A DNA stretch of 40,129 nt from Leptospirales bacterium (GTDB lineage: Bacteria > Spirochaetota > Leptospiria > Leptospirales > Leptospiraceae): the NCBI GenBank assembly GCA_013297885.1, contig JAAFIR010000040.1, positions 1 through 40,129 of the forward strand, in the 5' to 3' direction. Made by a program: the position numbers and the translations under genes. How positions within the stretch are numbered: position 1 is the first letter of the stretch; every line of letters starts with the position of its first letter. The notes under the pieces are model-generated. The model ran no database searches, had not been told where the DNA came from, and saw only the letters and a list, made by a program, of their open reading frames with translations. Positions 2,833 through 34,443 of the stretch are shown here, in pieces.

Positions 2833-3509
2833 TAGTGTAACTCTATCTTAATCCTAAATTTTTTTTTCTTAAAATGAATAAATTTTTCTGGTCTTAAACG
2901 ATTTAATTCAAATTCATAAATTCGATTGTTTACAATTTGTTCTGGTTCAAAACTGATTTGCAAAAGTCTTGTGCCTTTATAAGTTCCAATTCCACTACAA
3001 GATTCACAATGTATATCGGAACCAAAACAAGATGGACAAAGAAGTCTCACAACAAGTGGAACTTTTACTAAAATTCTTTTTCCAATTTCAGATTTAAAAA
3101 TAATCAAATCAATATCATGTTTCTCACCAGTATATTTGGAACGATCTTTTTTTCTGAGACCAGTTTTTAAAAGTCCACGTTTAGCTAGTCGATTAATGGA
3201 AGTGGTATACTGAATTCTATCTTGAGATAAAAGAACTGTTTCTTTTTCTTTGGATAATTTCTTTTTTAAAGTATATACTTTAATATATACTTTATCATAT
3301 TGTTCTCTATTATCACTTGAAAGAATTTGATAGGCTTTATGTATTTCTTCAAATTTTTCTCTTTGACCAGTTTGTTTGTTATCAGGATGAAAAATTTTAG
3401 CAAGAGTGTAATAATAATTTTTGATTAAATCTCTGCTTGAACCAAAAGGTAAATTCAAAGCAGAATAATAATCTGGAAAATTTTTTATTTTTTGTATTTC
3501 AGAATACAT
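2832..3509 (-). CDS. J-domain protein with C-terminal zinc-ribbon-like cysteines
   Basis: 225 residues. A J domain covers about residues 12-72 and has the HPD tripeptide at 41-43, the site that stimulates DnaK ATPase. The middle is basic, and near the C-terminus two CxxC pairs (LLCPSCFGS and HCESCSGIG) resemble one zinc module of DnaJ. It lacks the G/F linker and the full four-repeat zinc centre, so it is not the housekeeping DnaJ but a specialised co-chaperone, probably cytoplasmic. The start overlaps the end of the upstream barrel-protein gene by 11 nt, and the stop overlaps manA by one base. The client is unknown; because the two upstream genes encode exported proteins, a role in envelope-protein handling is possible (inference). 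Confidence 0.85.
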   Translation of the reverse strand: MYSEIQKIKNFPDYYSALNLPFGSSRDLIKNYYYTLAKIFHPDNKQTGQREKFEEIHKAYQILSSDNREQYDKVYIKVYTLKKKLSKEKETVLLSQDRIQYTTSINRLAKRGLLKTGLRKKDRSKYTGEKHDIDLIIFKSEIGKRILVKVPLVVRLLCPSCFGSDIHCESCSGIGTYKGTRLLQISFEPEQIVNNRIYEFELNRLRPEKFIHFKKKKFRIKIELH

Positions 3510-4287
3510 GGTAATAGCTTAACCTAAGCCCTCTGTCAAATGTTCTTTCTTGTAACATCGGAAATTGAAGTGAGAAACCTAAAAAACCACCTGTGTAAAT
3601 TTGATAACTTATACCAGGATATAAATTCCAAGAACGTATGTTCAGATCCACTTTTGGATTATAAGGTGCACGATATTCAGTTTCTAAAAATCCTCTAAAA
3701 TTTTCTGTGAAGCCATAGGACAAAGCAAGTGAACCTAAATAATTTCTTCTAAATTCTTGTGAAGGCTCTTCTTTAAACTGGCGATTTGATTCTGATTGAA
3801 ATTGAAAATTTGCAATTACTTCAAATGCGTCAAATTTTAATCCCATGTTCAAATGAGTTCTTAAAATGTACAGATCTGGAGCAACATCATCTCTTTTAAA
3901 TTTTGGATTTTGTTTATCAATTAGTCTTGTTCCAAATCCCCAAGCAAATGCACCAAATGATGTTGCATGTTCACGAGCAAATTTTAATCCAATATTAAAT
4001 CTATCGAGCTCTGTTAAAGTTTTTGCACCTGATTTTTCCCACTGTGTTTTTGTTGTGCCAAATTTCACAGAAAAATAATTTAGAAATTTCAACTCACCTT
4101 CAATGTAGGCTTGTTTCTCTCTTTCATAATAATTGACATCTCGTTTTTCAGAGCCACCTGCATCAATTCTAATTTTGGTATACACTCCAACAGGTTCTAC
4201 TCTTTGAGGAATTGCAAATTTACTATCTTCAGAAAATAAATTTAGTGATATAAAAATTACAAGAATTATTAGTATATTATTTTTCAT
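3499..4287 (-). CDS. Predicted outer-membrane beta-barrel protein
   Basis: 262 residues with a signal peptide of about 19 residues ending near LNLFSED. The mature part is rich in alternating aromatic/hydrophobic and polar residues, for example YIEGELKFLNYFSVKFG and GFLGFSLQFPML, and ends in an aromatic (YYHVF), the usual C-terminal signature of BAM-assembled barrels. I do not recognise a named family. AAGGA lies about 10 nt upstream of the ATG. The gene overlaps the upstream SGNH lipoprotein gene by 11 nt and the downstream J-domain gene by 11 nt, so the three are almost certainly cotranscribed. A link to the SGNH enzyme in envelope lipid or glycan modification is inference. Confidence 0.75.
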   Translation of the reverse strand: MKNNILIILVIFISLNLFSEDSKFAIPQRVEPVGVYTKIRIDAGGSEKRDVNYYEREKQAYIEGELKFLNYFSVKFGTTKTQWEKSGAKTLTELDRFNIGLKFAREHATSFGAFAWGFGTRLIDKQNPKFKRDDVAPDLYILRTHLNMGLKFDAFEVIANFQFQSESNRQFKEEPSQEFRRNYLGSLALSYGFTENFRGFLETEYRAPYNPKVDLNIRSWNLYPGISYQIYTGGFLGFSLQFPMLQERTFDRGLRLSYYHVF

Positions 4288-5125
4288 TATTAGTATATCC
4301 TTGTAAAACGGTTACATATTTTTTTGCCAGTATGCTAAAACCACCTGATGTTGGATGAATACAATCAAACATATTTCCAGCATTCGAAAATTGATTTCCA
4401 CCAGGTGCTAAACCAAGTGTTCCTCTGAGGTCAATGTATTTTAGTTGGGGTTCAATTCTTGTCAAGTTGACTAAAAAAGAATTATAGTCATTTAAGACTG
4501 CTGGAGCAAAAGCATTTACTTCTGCATTTGTAAAACCAACTGATGTATAAGTTGATCTGCAACCTGTTGTGGAAATCTCAGGAGCTTTGACATCTGGATT
4601 GGAATAATCATAGCCATGAACAATCCATACTAAAGGAGTTCCTCCATATTTTTGCATTTTGTATGCGTTGCCACCTTGGATCATTTGTTGAAAATTAGTT
4701 TGAAGTAAATTAAATCGAGATTGTTTTTCTTGTTCTAATCTTCCAACATATCCTGAAGGTGAGCCAAGCAAATCATTTCCACCAAGTGAAAGAAGCATGT
4801 ATTTTATATCAGCACCAGCTTCATCAATTACACGAGTATAAAGTGCGGTGCGATTCACTGCATTTAAAGTTTGTCCACCAAGTGTAGAACCTGTTATGCG
4901 ATAACCATGATAACGTTCCAACTGCACACGAAGAGTTTCAATCACTGGAACACCTAGTAAAATATCAGTCCAAGAATCTCCAATCATTCCAAATTTTGTT
5001 CCTCTTGTATCTGGAACACAAACTACTCCAACCCTACACAAAAGAGAAATTTTGATTTCATCAGTGAGTCCAGCTTTTGGACTATCACAATTAAATAGAA
5101 AAATTAATATAAATAATAACTTCAT
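4277..5125 (-). CDS. SGNH/GDSL-family hydrolase lipoprotein
   Basis: 282 residues. The first residues run to a lipobox ending FNC, so lipidation at Cys13 is likely. The SGNH blocks are clear: GDSW with nucleophile Ser51, a Gly/Thr-rich block II, GGND with Asn117, and FDCIHP with Asp254 and His257. It should act as an esterase or acyl-transferase at the cell envelope; the substrate (lipid or O-acetylated glycan) cannot be told from sequence. It is the first gene of the minus-strand run leading to manA. Upstream, 5126-5203 is AT-rich without a gene, and then repeat copy B begins. Confidence 0.88.
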   Translation of the reverse strand: MKLLFILIFLFNCDSPKAGLTDEIKISLLCRVGVVCVPDTRGTKFGMIGDSWTDILLGVPVIETLRVQLERYHGYRITGSTLGGQTLNAVNRTALYTRVIDEAGADIKYMLLSLGGNDLLGSPSGYVGRLEQEKQSRFNLLQTNFQQMIQGGNAYKMQKYGGTPLVWIVHGYDYSNPDVKAPEISTTGCRSTYTSVGFTNAEVNAFAPAVLNDYNSFLVNLTRIEPQLKYIDLRGTLGLAPGGNQFSNAGNMFDCIHPTSGGFSILAKKYVTVLQGYTNNEK

Positions 5126-5416: not shown

Positions 5417-5848
5417 TTAAAGAATTTTTTTTCCACTATTTAAAGCATTTATTATATGTTGAAATGGAATTTTAATAACTGCATAAGTAAAATTTTTTGT
5501 AATAACAAATTGTCCAGTATGAGTTGAAGTTCTACCTTCACCACCAATATCTGGTTTTAATGGAATTTTTGATTCATGATAAACAGTAATTCCATCAGAA
5601 GCAATTTGATCACCACTATCTAAATTTGAACCTTTTTTTAGTGGCTCGATCTCTACTTTATTAATTATAGCAATTTTAGGATTTAATTCTTTTAAAATTT
5701 CAGCCGTACTATTCCGGTCACATTCATGTTTAAAAAAAGATTTTTTAACTGAATCTAAGCGAACTAATTTTACGGGGATAATTTTTCTAAAAATAATTTT
5801 GGCACTTTCACATTCAATTGATTCTCCAACTTGATGAAAAGTTCCCAT
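5417..5848 (-). CDS. Hypothetical protein, last gene of a small accessory operon
   Basis: 143 residues, not recognised. There is no signal peptide or membrane segment. It is a mixed alpha/beta protein with two cysteines in the first half (IECES and KHECDRN) and a Gly/Thr-rich stretch near residue 105 (GGEGRTSTHTGQF). It starts one base after the stop of the 162-residue gene, so it is probably translationally coupled. Together with the two genes upstream it follows a broken HEPN-like gene on the same strand, which makes an accessory or defence role possible, but nothing in the protein itself shows it. Confidence 0.6.
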   Translation of the reverse strand: MGTFHQVGESIECESAKIIFRKIIPVKLVRLDSVKKSFFKHECDRNSTAEILKELNPKIAIINKVEIEPLKKGSNLDSGDQIASDGITVYHESKIPLKPDIGGEGRTSTHTGQFVITKNFTYAVIKIPFQHIINALNSGKKIL

Positions 5849-5849
5849 T

Positions 5850-6335
5850 TTATTTTAAAAGATGACTTGATACTTTTTCAAGTTTAATTGGATCAATAGA
5901 AAATAGTTCTGAGACTTCATCGACTGAAAAATCTATTCCAATTTTCTGAACTATTTCTGAAATAATTTTTAACTTATGTAAATCAACTTCTTCATTAGCA
6001 TGTACAACATACTTATCTTCATTTTCATTTAATTCATTTCCAAACTCTTCTTCTGTTATTAATTTTTCTGAAAGATTATTTAGTAACTTTAAAAAATTAT
6101 TTGTTTTATGATAATTTCTTAAAGCTGTTATATAAAGATTTTCTTTAATTTCATTTTTGAATATGAATTTATTACCAAGTTTTAAAAGATTCTTTTTATC
6201 CATTAATGCAATTTGATTTGGAGTATGAACTGTAACATAAAAATCTTCTGAATTAGCATCTGTTTCATTTGGATCAAAATAAATTTTTTCGCTAGTTTTA
6301 TAGTTTTTTAAATATTTAGGAGTTTTTAGAGTCAT
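5850..6335 (-). CDS. Hypothetical protein of accessory operon
   Basis: 162 residues from the chosen start. A 15-nt longer reading from 6350 is possible, but the ATG at 6335 has AGAAGG six bases upstream and is preferred. It overlaps the end of the 116-residue gene by 20 nt. The protein is soluble and charged. The second half looks like helical segments (KLLNNLSEKLITEEEFGNEL, then VDLHKLKIISEIVQKIG), and the last 25 residues (VDEVSELFSIDPIKLEKVSSH) could be a small helical or HTH-like unit. I do not recognise the family. Confidence 0.6.
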   Translation of the reverse strand: MTLKTPKYLKNYKTSEKIYFDPNETDANSEDFYVTVHTPNQIALMDKKNLLKLGNKFIFKNEIKENLYITALRNYHKTNNFLKLLNNLSEKLITEEEFGNELNENEDKYVVHANEEVDLHKLKIISEIVQKIGIDFSVDEVSELFSIDPIKLEKVSSHLLK

Positions 6336-6666
6336 TTTTAGCCTTCTCAAATTCTTCTATTGCTTCAATAATTGTATTCTTTAAGGAAATAGCATTTTCT
6401 AAAGTCAGAGCAACGGAGAATTGTAGGTTTCTTTCCAAGGCTACTTCAGAGGAAACTAATGGTTTACCTGGTTCAATTAGATTTTTATTTTCATCTAATT
6501 CAAAAATAAATTTTGCTGGTATTGCAGGTTTATCAATAAAAAATTCTAAAATAATTTTGTTCTCAGTTGAGTTTGGAAAAGCATCATCTATAGAATATGT
6601 TTTGTAATCGGGAGATTTAGTGATTAACAACAAACCTTTATTAGTCATATCAATTTTATCAGCCAT
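6316..6666 (-). CDS. Hypothetical protein, weakly DUF3467-like
   Basis: 116 residues, soluble. The layout of beta strands followed by a single C-terminal amphipathic helix (FSVALTLENAISLKNTIIEA, then IEEFEKAK) resembles DUF3467-type proteins in form, but I see no conserved signature, so this is only a suggestion. No clear ribosome-binding site precedes the ATG; Met7 is an alternative start. It is the first of three overlapping or abutting genes (6666 down to 5417). The 147 nt upstream (6667-6813), before the HEPN-like pseudogene, has no gene and may hold the promoter. Confidence 0.5.
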   Translation of the reverse strand: MADKIDMTNKGLLLITKSPDYKTYSIDDAFPNSTENKIILEFFIDKPAIPAKFIFELDENKNLIEPGKPLVSSEVALERNLQFSVALTLENAISLKNTIIEAIEEFEKAKNDSKNS

Positions 6667-6813: not shown

Positions 6814-8225
6814 TTAATTCTCCGTTTCTTTCTTTGACCAAGGGACATATTCTTCACCATTACTATAATAATTCGTATTTATACATCTATTTATGTATTT
6901 ATCTTCAAATTCTAAAATCCTAAGTAATGACATTTCTATATACCAAATATAAAGTTGCAATGTTTCTAAAATTGTATCAAAACTAATTTCACTTAATTTT
7001 TTTCTTTTTTCTATTTGAGAATGAACGATAGCATTTCTGGTATATACTATTGCTTCAGGTGCATCAAGGATATTATTTTCTGAAACTTTAAATTCTTGTA
7101 ATGAGTTAAGATCAGTTGGAATTTGATAACCAATATTAAGTTGCGAGAGTAATAATCGAATTTTATTGGAAGCGCTTATATTTTCAGAATCTTTTCCTAA
7201 GATCATTCCTTTATTTTCAATAATCCACCAGTTATAAATTAGCTCTAATGCAGTTTGTGCTAAAATTATAGACCCATCAGCAAATCCAGCAGTTCCGTTT
7301 GCTTCAACATACCAATGAACTGCATGAGTAAGAAAATTTTTTCCATCAGTTTTTTTATCTTGCCAAGTTGATCTAAATTTTTTCCAAAGTTCATTTAAAC
7401 CATCAACTGAATGTGCTAAAGCCCAACTTTGAACCCATTTATACGGATCAGTATAATAGAAAGTATAATCAGTCCAAATGGTTTGGTTATCATGAATTCC
7501 TTTTATGAATAAAGCTGAAGTTTTTCTTCCATTTAAAAACGATAAGAATGTGTTAAGGCAGTGAAAAATATCTTGAATATCTCTTTGAGAAATAGAATTT
7601 TTTTGTAGTTAATTCTCCTGCATAAAGAATTAAGTAACCTCCTTTTTCTTGCAATGATTTAATGCGTTCTTTATAATCAATACACTTGTCAATGGTTATG
7701 AGAAAGTTTTCATCCTCCAAACGAATTCTATTCATAGACGTTGTGCAACTACTTTCTGAAATACTTTTTACTTGTACTCCCCAAAGTTCTCTAAGATTTG
7801 GAATTGAAAATGAAATTTTATTTACAGGAATTGTTCCATCACCTAAAATTGTAATACCACTCAATACCCCTTTAATAAAAACTATACTTATAGTATCTTT
7901 ATAATTATTTGTAATTTTTGTTATAAAAACTTTTCCTAATTCTATACCATTAAAAATTAAAAGTAAGTTTGAGCTATTCGTATTTAAAGATAATCCTTTA
8001 TTACCCTTTATTGGCTTTTATTGGCTTTCCAGAAAAGCAGACTCTTGAATTTGGAAACCATTCAAAAGAGATATTCCCAAATATTATTATTTCATTAGAC
8101 TCTTCCTTTAGTATAAATTCTCCTTCATGAATTTTAATTGAATCATTTGCTTCATTCATTGTAACAGAAAAAGGGTTTATTTTTGGTATATCTTTAACAA
8201 TTTCTAAATATTCCTCGTTAGTCAT
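6814..8225 (-). pseudogene. HEPN-like (ApeA-type) protein, broken by two frameshifts
   Basis: Three minus-strand frames join into one protein of about 466 residues: 8225 to about 8026, then to about 7604, then to 6814. The first break is an exact tandem duplication of TTTATTGGCT (8007-8016 and 8017-8026). Removing one copy makes the frame run straight on through a region with no start codon of its own. The second break is a run of seven T at 7598-7604; six would restore the frame. The C-terminal part carries RNAIVH, the R-x4-H motif of HEPN ribonucleases, inside a helical region. The N-terminal half is beta-rich (FEWFPNSRVCFSG), which suits the domain found before HEPN in ApeA-like abortive-infection proteins. 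The family call is recognition by eye. AAGGA lies about 12 nt before the ATG. As written it cannot make the full protein. Confidence 0.75.
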
Positions 8226-8330
8226 ATAAATTATAAATCCTTAAGAAACTATATGAATGAATGATCCTACTTGTCAAGGAAATTAGGCAAGTTTACTATT
8301 TACAAAATTTAGTTCCCCAACACTTAGCGA

Positions 8331-8504
8331 AAGTGATTGAAACGTGGTCAAAAAATTCAGAAGGGAATTTTTTGACCGAAGTTGAAAGCACGGTTTTTTC
8401 TCACACCTAACCCTCTTTCCCTACCCTCACAGGGAAGGGACAAAACTGAAATATTATTCTACAAAAATAAAATTGTGTTAGGTGTGAGAAAAAATTCGCC
8501 CAAG
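8331..8504 (+). repeat. Structured intergenic repeat, copy C (GTG/CAC variant)
   Basis: It starts AAGTGATTGAAACG. Hairpin 1 has a perfect 13-bp stem (8346-8358 with 8365-8377). The link is GTTGAAAGCACGG, and hairpin 2 has a perfect 18-bp stem (8394-8411 with 8477-8494), closing on TTCGCCCAA. The 5' box is GTG instead of GGG and the link box is CAC instead of CCC, so the pairing is kept by a compensatory change. The loop of hairpin 2 holds a further TTCCCT/AGGGAA hairpin. It lies between the HEPN-like pseudogene and the 3' end of the barrel-protein gene. Confidence 0.85.
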
Positions 8505-8513
8505 AAACAAAAC

Positions 8514-9767: not shown

Positions 9768-9820
9768 TTTTTCATAATATAAAGAAATCATTTTTTGCAA
9801 ATGGAATTTTTATTTTTTGC

Positions 9821-9958
9821 TTGGGCGAATTTTTTCTCACTTAACATTGATTAAATGGTAATTTTTATTTTTAAAGAAGTGAGAAAAAACCGGGCTTTTC
9901 GCTACTTCTGAATCCTCTGCCTAAAGTCAGAGGCTTTTCAGAAACGCTTCAATCCCTT
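9821..9958 (-). repeat. Structured intergenic repeat, copy D
   Basis: On the minus strand: GGGATTGAAGCG, hairpin 1 TTCTGAAAAGCCTCT with AGAGGATTCAGAA (the copy-B hairpin with a small mismatch), then the link GTAGCGAAAAGCCCGG, hairpin 2 TTTTTTCTCACTT with AAGTGAGAAAAAA (9830-9842), and closing TTCGCCCAAGC. It is just upstream of the barrel-protein gene and shares the TCTCAC arm with copy C on the other side of that gene. The remainder, 9966-10190, is AT-rich with no gene or clear signal. Confidence 0.83.
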
Positions 9959-16880: not shown

Positions 16881-18287
16881 GTGTCGAAAATTATAATTTT
16901 TTTTCTCTCATTTCTGAGTCTTTTTTTACAATCACAAGAATTGTCCAAAGAAGATTACAGAAAAGAAGTTTTAATTGGAGAGTATTATTCGTTACTTAAA
17001 TTGCATAAAAACAAAGAAGCGGTGGCATTTGTGGAAGAATATTTTCCAAAACACCTTTCTGAACGCATTAAAAGAGACGGACATAAAAACTTGAGTAAAC
17101 AAGATTTTGAAGCTAAAAGTTCAGAATCCTCAAACATTAATTCCATCGAATATGAAAGTAGCGTTGTGCAAATTTTAAGAATTGATAGAGATGATGATGC
17201 AAAAACTATTATGGTCAAGAAAATATTGAATCATTACAATGCCCTCGTTTTAAATGGAAAAAGAGAACAAGGACTCCATTTTGCAAAGCAAAACCTTCCG
17301 GAAGATATTTACCAAAAACTTGCTTTAAGCAACGAATCAGTTATTATCACTAAATTAGATGTAATAAAAAAATATAATGATGTTGCTTATAATCTTCATT
17401 ATGTAAGCGAGCCGAATTTCAAACTCGTAAAAGTTTATAGGACATACAAAATAACTTATAAAGATGGGACTTCTGTTGAAGCTACAGCTGAACATCCATT
17501 TTATATCTTAGGCAGAGGTTGGACACCTGTTAAAGAATTAAAAGTTGGTGACGAATCAGAAACGATTAAGAGGAAAGGATTAAAAATTATTAGCATTGAA
17601 ATTAAAGATTCTAAAACACCAGTAACTGTTTATAATTTCGAAGTTGAAGGAGATCATAATTATTTTGTAGGTGCAAGTGGAGTTTTGGTTCATAATGATT
17701 GTAAATTTACAGAAAAACCCATTCAGTATAAAGAGCTCCCAAAGGGATTTTTTAGAGATGAATATGGGAATATTCCTGAAAAGGCTGCATGGGCTGGGAC
17801 AGGACTTGAATTTGTTATAGAATTAAATCCCCCAAAAAAAAATCCAGAAGGAACTTATAGCATAAAAGTAAAAACTTTTGAAGTTGAAGTTCAAACTATC
17901 ATCAATACTGATAAAAATCTTGAATGGAAAAATATAAATGACTTTAAAGATTATTATAAAAAAGATAAAGTCTATACAATCAAAGATGTTGATCAAGACT
18001 TTACAACAAAAGGAGGGACTGAATATCATGAAAGTTTGCATAGAAAAGTTGCTAAAGATACTTTTGATAAATATAAAAATGAAATAGAGTCTGAAATAGG
18101 AAAAATTAAAGATACTGACTTTAGAATTGTAATAAAAAAAGCAAGAGAAAAACTTTTGGATTATAAATCTAAAATCCAAAAAGAATTTTATGACAAAAAA
18201 GATCATGACCGGATTCGGGTAGATACTTGGAATTATTTTAGAACAATTTATGAAAAAGAAGTCTTGAACAAAAAGGATCAAAAGTGA
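16881..18287 (+). CDS. Polymorphic-toxin-like protein: partial Hint domain and HExxH domain
   Basis: 468 residues starting at GTG, with AAGG five bases upstream. Residues 1-19 are a signal peptide. Residues about 20-165 are helical and of unknown fold. Residues about 183-272 match the C-terminal part of pretoxin Hint domains (YKITYKDGTSVEATAEHPFY, GRGWTPVKELKVGD, VYNFEVEGDHNYFVGASGVLVHN). The usual N-terminal Hint segment with its catalytic Cys is missing: the only Cys is 274, just after VHN. Residues 273-468 form the cargo, with HESLH (383-387) as an HExxH zinc site and a later YDKKDHD (437-443), a layout like DUF922 metallopeptidases. Exported protease toxin is the likely role. The overlapping lipoprotein gene downstream is the likely immunity gene. 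Confidence 0.75.
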   Translation: MSKIIIFFLSFLSLFLQSQELSKEDYRKEVLIGEYYSLLKLHKNKEAVAFVEEYFPKHLSERIKRDGHKNLSKQDFEAKSSESSNINSIEYESSVVQILRIDRDDDAKTIMVKKILNHYNALVLNGKREQGLHFAKQNLPEDIYQKLALSNESVIITKLDVIKKYNDVAYNLHYVSEPNFKLVKVYRTYKITYKDGTSVEATAEHPFYILGRGWTPVKELKVGDESETIKRKGLKIISIEIKDSKTPVTVYNFEVEGDHNYFVGASGVLVHNDCKFTEKPIQYKELPKGFFRDEYGNIPEKAAWAGTGLEFVIELNPPKKNPEGTYSIKVKTFEVEVQTIINTDKNLEWKNINDFKDYYKKDKVYTIKDVDQDFTTKGGTEYHESLHRKVAKDTFDKYKNEIESEIGKIKDTDFRIVIKKAREKLLDYKSKIQKEFYDKKDHDRIRVDTWNYFRTIYEKEVLNKKDQK

Positions 18288-33563: not shown

Positions 33564-33933
33564 ATTGTATATGAATTTTTCTTGGTTTAAAAAATAGAAA
33601 CAAAAATTGGAACTTGTTTTTTTAACACAATTTGAAAAAGGTTTAGTTCAACTTCATTATAAATTTTTATAAAAATTAGTTAAAAATATTTTTTTGGAGA
33701 AAAAAAAATCTTTTTTGTAAAAAATTAGCAAAAATTTTTTTTAGTTTTTAAAATTCTTATAATTCTTTTTTCTATTCTGCTCTAAATTTATCAATTCACT
33801 CGAATTATTAAATCAATCATAAGACCAAAAATTCTAATTAAAAAAAACTCCAACAAGCTAGACAAAAAATCTTTTTTTTAAAATTAGTTCGTTTTTGTGT
33901 AAACTTTTCTGTCACAAAATCAGTTTAATAGAT

Positions 33934-34443
33934 ATGAAATCAAAATTTATTTTTCAAAACCAACAAATTGCAGAATTAAGTGAAATGGAAGAAGTTGTAG
34001 AAACCTCTTGTACACTTTTAATTCCAGAAGAATACTGGAAAGAGCTTCATTTCAAAATAGAAAATTTTGGAAGTTTGAAAAATTATTTTACTCACTTGTT
34101 AGTGAAATATGAAATTTATTTAAAAAGCGGAATTGTTCCTTATTCTTGTAGGCTAAAAACAGAGTATCAAGCTAAAGGACAAAATTTGATTCGGAAAGAT
34201 TTTGAGCCGAGGAAAAAGGATTGGTTTCTAATGAAACTTTACCGGTCAGCATTTAATTTTTCGATCAATAAACTTTTTGTGTTGCTGCTCCGCATTGACT
34301 TGATGAATTTTACAGAAGTTGTGGAATCTGCCGTGAACTTAGACTTCCCCGTTGCAACGGGTAAAGAATGGGTTTTTCAATACGGGGGATTCTTTCAAAA
34401 CGGTAAAATTCCCCAATACGAAAGGATTTTCCAATTCGGATAG
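33934..34443 (+). CDS. DUF1564 family protein
   Basis: 169 residues from ATG 33934 (a TTG start at 33895 would add 13). The core matches DUF1564: TLLIPEEYWKELHFKIENFG, YFTHLLVKYEIYLKSG, then LKTEYQAKGQNLIRKDF, EPRKKDWF and LLLRIDLMNF. DUF1564 is a family I know essentially from Leptospira, where it is multicopy; its function is not established, though the ribbon-helix-like LLIPEEYW start suggests nucleic-acid binding (inference). The last 30 residues (EWVFQYGGFFQNGKIPQYER) are Gly/Gln-rich and repetitive, unlike the family, and may be read-through into repeat-like DNA. Confidence 0.82.
   Translation: MKSKFIFQNQQIAELSEMEEVVETSCTLLIPEEYWKELHFKIENFGSLKNYFTHLLVKYEIYLKSGIVPYSCRLKTEYQAKGQNLIRKDFEPRKKDWFLMKLYRSAFNFSINKLFVLLLRIDLMNFTEVVESAVNLDFPVATGKEWVFQYGGFFQNGKIPQYERIFQFG

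What the first reader, a model, noticed from the sequence alone, without database searches (positions are those of the whole stretch)
6814..8225. HEPN-like defence gene split by a 10-bp tandem duplication and a 7-base homopolymer
Three reading frames become one continuous protein of about 466 residues when one TTTATTGGCT copy (8007-8026) and one T of the 7598-7604 run are removed. The C-terminus has R-x4-H (RNAIVH). Both lesions are of the reversible slippage type, so the locus could also be phase-variable. ApeA-like HEPN proteins are abortive-infection effectors, where reversible silencing makes sense.
Basis: partly seen in the sequence, partly recalled or inferred. Interest (0 to 1): 0.65.

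Follow-up and report, generated by a model that had tools for sequence, protein, structure and literature searches.

The report
Broken copy of a YopA-type HEPN gene
A gene for a likely virus-defence RNA-cutting protein, acquired from distant bacteria, has been broken in this genome by two small length changes; the break itself is ordinary decay, but the protein family (named after YopA of a Bacillus virus) appears not to have been recognised as RNA-cutting before.

Summary
Three minus-strand frames (8225-8004, 8017-7556, 7608-6817) line up end to end with one uninterrupted 467-aa protein of Psychroflexus aurantiacus (59%) and with Dyadobacter (52%) and Hymenobacter (43%) proteins. The frame changes at a 10-bp tandem duplication (8007-8026) and at a 7-base T run (7598-7604). 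All three pieces are conserved, the gene shows no rate excess, and a near-consensus promoter remains: recent inactivation, or less likely assembly error. Phase variation is not supported: two breaks would have to revert together, relatives lack the duplication, and such homopolymers are everywhere, many inside intact genes. The protein belongs to the family RefSeq calls 'YopA family' (SPbeta YopA). No Pfam, NCBIfam or PADLOC model recognises it above cut-off. Its C-terminal domain is HEPN: RN-x3-H and an upstream ALE motif are invariant, and solved HEPN toxins and Csm6 recur in the fold search. The N-terminus is beta-rich, like ApeA, but ApeA's own models are not met. Family members sit inside restriction-modification operons in several phyla. 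Here the gene is a horizontal acquisition from Bacteroidota, absent from 295 other genomes of the phylum.

The parts
8001..8225 (-). N-terminal piece (74 codons, ATG at 8225) of the broken gene; about residues 1-69 of the joined protein
   Evidence: Matches Psychroflexus residues 1-68, 60%, E 3e-22
8007..8026 (.). 10-bp perfect tandem duplication TTTATTGGCT x2, with an imperfect third copy at 7997-8006; first frame break
   Evidence: absent at the homologous position in L021, L022, L023
7556..8017 (-). Middle piece, open frame of 154 codons (beta-rich N-terminal domain)
   Evidence: part of it (7553-7864) matches Psychroflexus residues 117-205, 62%, E 8e-34
7598..7604 (.). T7 run (A7 on coding strand); second frame break, in a lysine-rich stretch that is naturally A-rich in homologues (5, 6 or 9 A's)
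6814..7608 (-). C-terminal piece, open frame of 264 codons plus stop; holds the HEPN domain; only usual start codon in this frame gives a 130-aa ORF from 7206
6817..7428 (-). HEPN domain as modelled (204 aa, pLDDT 85, pTM 0.85)
7021..7038 (-). RNAIVH, the HEPN R-x4-H catalytic motif
   Evidence: RN-x3-H invariant in 12 of 12 sequences
7243..7251 (-). ALE motif, conserved acidic residue upstream of R-x4-H
   Evidence: Invariant in 12 of 12 sequences
8248..8277 (-). Promoter-like site TTGACA-18-TATAGT, followed by AAGGA at 8238-8242, 12 nt before the ATG
   Evidence: 11 of 12 consensus matches; such sites are common by chance in this AT-rich DNA

Best explanation
This is a recently inactivated copy of a single-gene HEPN ribonuclease effector of the YopA family. 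The lineage acquired it from Bacteroidota. When intact, the beta-rich N-terminal 250-odd residues probably sense a phage-related signal and the C-terminal HEPN domain, as a dimer, cleaves RNA through RN-x3-H and arrests the infected cell. Two small length changes of the slippage type put the catalytic domain out of frame with the start codon, so this copy makes no full-length protein. Shown: the one-gene identity, both breaks, the HEPN signature, the horizontal origin, and restriction-modification neighbours of relatives. Inferred: RNase activity, sensing by the N-terminus, and that the breaks are real mutations kept because the gene is costly or dispensable.
For: Uninterrupted full-length homologues over the whole length. 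Window nested inside a Bacteroidota clade with 100/100 support; no copy in 295 other genomes of the phylum; the flanking 3499-5125 gene pair is conserved in relatives, the 5.4-8.2 kb stretch is not. RN-x3-H and ALE invariant in 12 of 12. Fold search of the window's own C-terminal domain: top hit is the HEPN toxin of a HEPN-MNT pair (7bxo, prob 0.77), with further HEPN chains (7ae6, 2hsb, 4nqf, 8xdj, 8xeh) and Csm6 in the first 50. No accelerated change (relative-rate test 38 against 29, chi-square 1.2), so the breaks are recent. No sign of general homopolymer error: 69 runs of 7 or more lie inside 28 intact ORFs of the window. Relatives in E. coli are also broken repeatedly: a split ORF of unchanged length, IS5 and IS1 interruptions. 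Restriction-modification neighbours: type I RM plus two DUF262 genes in E. coli, MmeI plus YhcG plus DEAD helicase in Burkholderiaceae, methylase plus SNF2/PLD helicase in Nostoc.
Against: No reads were available, so an assembly error at either tract is not excluded, and only one genome carries this allele. No fold hit passes E 0.001 and HEPN_Apea is below its cut-off. Anti-phage function of any YopA-family member has not been shown in the papers I could search. The Bacteroidota copies are not in obvious defence operons.
Confidence: 0.72

Rival explanations
1. Assembly or sequencing error: the gene is intact in the living organism and one or both length changes are artefacts.
For: The gene shows no excess of substitutions and no other damage; one of two breaks is a homopolymer; draft genome of 72 contigs.
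Against: 69 homopolymers of 7 or more, up to 10, sit in intact ORFs of the same contig; a 10-bp duplication is not a usual base-calling error; two errors in one gene and none evident in 28 ORFs of 150 aa or more is unlikely.
Confidence: 0.16
2. Phase-variable locus: reversible slippage at the two tracts switches the effector on and off.
For: Both breaks are of slippage type; the third, imperfect 10-bp copy shows local repeat expansion; Dyadobacter has A9 at the same place.
Against: Two independent tracts would have to be in frame at once; the 10-bp unit has only two perfect copies and is absent in all close relatives; tracts of 7 are below the usual length of switching tracts (own knowledge) and are everywhere in this window.
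Confidence: 0.06
3. The pieces are still functional, either as a separate 130-aa HEPN fragment or through slippage during transcription or translation.
For: No decay beyond the two breaks; poly-A tracts can slip in AT-rich genomes (own knowledge).
Against: The 130-aa ORF from 7206 starts after the first helices and after the conserved ALE motif, so the HEPN bundle is incomplete; slippage at A7 cannot bypass the 10-bp duplication.
Confidence: 0.05

Closest known systems
YopA of Bacillus phage SPbeta, and RefSeq 'YopA family protein'
   Same: Homologous along 94% of the length (E 3e-25); same domain layout, RN-x3-H and C-terminal Y-x-NR...VPW tail
   Different: SPbeta yopA is intact and prophage-borne; ours is 26% identical, chromosomal and broken; no described function found for yopA
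ApeA (ApeA_NTD1 + HEPN_Apea)
   Same: Similar length (474 and 467), beta-rich N-terminus then HEPN, ALE and RN-x3-H in the same order; ApeA is also described as embedded in R-M operons (PMC3710099)
   Different: ApeA_NTD1 not matched, HEPN_Apea below cut-off, profile-profile E 0.075
Tha (tail-activated HEPN anti-phage protein of S. aureus prophages, PMC11087260)
   Same: Single protein, C-terminal HEPN with RN-x3-H (RNSIMH), prophage-borne like YopA
   Different: 301 aa, N-terminus not predicted to fold, partner Ith; no sequence comparison made here
HEPN toxins of HEPN-MNT pairs; Csm6
   Same: Best structural matches of the C-terminal domain
   Different: No MNT antitoxin or CARF domain is seen in or next to the window gene

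Membership tests
HEPN superfamily | R-x4-6-H with a polar residue (mostly N, D or H) after R | tested here: met
   RNAIVH in the window, RN-x3-H in 12 of 12 sequences; definition from PMC3710099
HEPN superfamily | Upstream conserved acidic residue | tested here: met
   ALE invariant in 12 of 12
HEPN superfamily | Alpha-helical HEPN fold | tested here: inconclusive
   All-helical model, pTM 0.85; HEPN chains recur among the top 50 but none below E 0.001
HEPN superfamily | RNase activity, dimer | not testable with these tools
   -
ApeA | PF18862 ApeA_NTD1 at the N-terminus | tested here: not met
   No match up to E 10 in the joined protein, nor listed at E 1 for any member of alignment A4; true ApeA proteins of the phylum score 30-144 bits
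ApeA | PF18739 HEPN_Apea above 24.4 bits | tested here: not met
   17.6 bits, E 0.005; 6 of 13 family members match weakly at E up to 1
ApeA | PADLOC model match | tested here: not met
   No match for the pieces; for homologues only stray single-member hits, the best CARF_HEPN and Cas13a
YopA family | Full-length homology to SPbeta YopA | tested here: met
   94% coverage, 25.5% identity, E 3e-25; alignment A1
Phase-variable locus | Repeat tract conserved among relatives or length-variable in the population | tested here: inconclusive
   Duplication absent in relatives, so conservation is not met; population variation not tested, no reads available

The most novel reading that the evidence does not exclude
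The YopA family is a widespread, so far unmodelled family of single-gene HEPN ribonucleases, with a beta-rich sensor domain, that defends phages, plasmids and chromosomes against other phages and is recurrently inactivated when not needed.
Probability: 0.5. Interest if true: 0.5.

Novelty: new variant of a known kind. Interest (0 to 1): 0.3.

Why it matters
The broken gene itself is an ordinary case of a horizontally acquired, probably costly gene being lost. The use of the finding is that it ties SPbeta YopA, a gene of unknown function in a model prophage, to the HEPN ribonucleases and to restriction-modification operons in Cyanobacteriota and Pseudomonadota, which gives a directly testable prediction for a family that the Pfam, NCBIfam and PADLOC copies used here do not model.

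Tried and rejected
Search for the gene in 99 related genomes and 296 of the phylum: none but its own. DNA-level relatives on plasmids: none. Viral contigs with the C-terminal piece: none; with an alignment: one near-copy of SPbeta yopA. Conserved partner gene next to the HEPN gene: window neighbours 5417-6666 have no counterpart near any homologue and no family match. Whole-protein fold searches against PDB and viral models gave nothing usable; the domain alone was informative. The idea that the three frames are chance ORFs is rejected by the homology. Bacterial -1 frameshifting at A7 as a rescue is rejected because the frame needed is the other one and because of the second break. The preprint on ApeA activation cited in PMC13405049 is not held.

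Full report
Observation. The window is the whole contig C37 of a 4.6-Mb, 72-contig genome. On the minus strand, 8225-6814 holds three open frames: 8225-8004, 8017-7556 and 7608-6817. The first change of frame falls in TTTATTGGCT x2 (8007-8026), preceded by a 7-of-10 copy at 7997-8006; the second in a T7 run (7598-7604). Read through, the frames give 466 residues. As sequence features both repeats are unremarkable: simulated windows of the same composition have 0 to 2 perfect tandem duplications of period 10 or more, and the window has 137 homopolymers of 7 or more.

It is one gene. A scan of 84,980 species found an uninterrupted 467-aa protein in Psychroflexus aurantiacus (59% identity over query residues 1-462), and others in Dyadobacter (52%) and Hymenobacter (43%). 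The three window ORFs match successive parts of the Psychroflexus protein with E 3e-22, 8e-34 and 3e-51, starting at its first residue; in the alignment the middle piece stops matching exactly where the C-terminal piece begins. The homologous DNA in all three relatives lacks the 10-bp duplication, and at the tract it has 5, 6 or 9 A's and codes for a lysine pair or triplet. So the duplication is an insertion in our lineage, and the second break is in a naturally A-rich codon run; whether bases were lost or gained there cannot be said.

What family. The joined protein matches SPbeta YopA along 94% of its length (E 3e-25) and plasmid proteins of Methylophaga, Escherichia and cyanobacteria. RefSeq names the E. 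coli ones 'YopA family protein'. No Pfam, NCBIfam or PADLOC model passes its cut-off; the only recurrent signal is HEPN_Apea, at 17.6 bits against 24.4 in the window and at weak levels in 6 of 13 members. RN-x3-H and an upstream ALE are invariant in 12 of 12, as defined for HEPN in PMC3710099. AlphaFold2 gives a confident model of the intact Psychroflexus homologue (pLDDT 87, pTM 0.88): a beta-rich half to about residue 250, then helices. The window's own C-terminal domain (204 aa, pTM 0.85) has as top structural match the HEPN toxin of a HEPN-MNT pair (prob 0.77), and HEPN proteins and Csm6 recur in the first 50, although no E-value is below 0.001. Motif plus fold together make HEPN likely.

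Relation to ApeA. True ApeA proteins exist in the same phylum. Profile comparison with them gives a weak (E 0.075) but collinear alignment that pairs the LSF region with LSL and ALE with ALE. ApeA_NTD1 is not matched. I therefore call it ApeA-like in layout, not a member of ApeA.

Neighbours of relatives. In E. coli the gene lies in an integrase-bearing island with a type I restriction-modification system and two DUF262 genes; in a Burkholderiaceae MAG between an MmeI-type enzyme and YhcG plus a DEAD helicase; in Nostoc and Planktothrix between a methylase and an SNF2 helicase (with a PLD domain in Nostoc). SPbeta carries it in a prophage. The Bacteroidota copies and the window copy stand alone. 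This is the pattern of a self-contained effector that is often recruited by defence islands.

Origin and age. The window protein is nested in a Bacteroidota clade with 100/100 support; no other genome of 296 in the phylum has it. The neighbouring gene pair 3499-5125 is conserved in relatives but the 5.4-8.2 kb stretch is not, so it is accessory. The third-position GC equals that of the neighbours. A relative-rate test shows no excess of changes (38 against 29). The breaks are therefore recent compared with the acquisition, or not real.

Real or artefact. In the same contig 69 homopolymers of 7 to 10 bases lie inside 28 intact ORFs of 150 aa or more, so there is no general homopolymer error, and a 10-bp duplication is not a typical error. 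Without reads I leave 16% for an artefact. Inactivation recurs in the family: one E. coli copy is a split ORF of unchanged length, others are interrupted by IS5 or IS1, and a cyanobacterial MAG copy is frameshifted.

Phase variation. Two tracts would need to be in phase together; the perfect unit is present twice; the duplication is not conserved. I give it 6%. The 130-aa ORF from 7206 lacks the first HEPN helices and the ALE motif, so it is unlikely to be an active enzyme on its own.

Mechanism. Most likely, when intact: signal sensed by the beta-rich N-terminus, HEPN dimer activated, RNA cleaved, infected cell arrested. The HEPN signature is shown; sensing, cleavage and protection are inferred from HEPN biology (PMC3710099, PMC11087260) and from neighbours. 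In this organism the gene is most likely off for good.

Noticed in passing
window 8380-8512: Palindromic element (CTCACACCTAAC...GTTAGGTGTGAG) just upstream of the gene; dozens of full or partial copies in the genome (40 matches listed, the cap), up to 87% identical. MITE- or REP-like; a 28-bp piece also at 9813-9840.
   Followed up: partly
L010:836-9103 and L011:893-10766: Cyanobacterial plasmid operon: N6 methylase (Eco57I/TaqI_C in Nostoc), small ORF, YopA-type HEPN, then SNF2 helicase (with PLD domain in Nostoc); looks like an R-M or BREX/DISARM-related defence locus with a built-in HEPN.
   Followed up: partly
L017:3724-19314: E. coli island next to uvrA-ssb: recombinases, 158-aa ORF, YopA-family protein, HTH, type I RM M and S, two DUF262 genes, R. 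The HEPN gene is matched in only 19 of 5,426 genomes, 9 of them with a full-length copy.
   Followed up: partly
L018, L019, L032, L063: Independent breaks of the same family: split ORF of unchanged length, IS5, frameshift in a Richelia MAG, IS1 with loss of the rest.
   Followed up: partly
L022:8004-9341: Dyadobacter copy lacks the C-terminal VPW tail found in most members outside the cyanobacterial plasmid group.
   Followed up: no
window 5417-6666: Three consecutive minus-strand ORFs (143, 166, 116 aa) downstream of the broken gene, with no family match and no counterpart near homologues.
   Followed up: partly
window 16881-18287: 468-aa protein with a Hint-like stretch (VEGDHNYFVGASGVLVHN), as in the pretoxin part of polymorphic toxins; seen by eye only.
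   Followed up: no
window 33895-34443: 182-aa ORF with third-position GC 0.32, about twice its neighbours; a 34% relative lies beside the conserved 3499-5125 gene pair in a genome of the same genus (L049:11512-11982).
   Followed up: no
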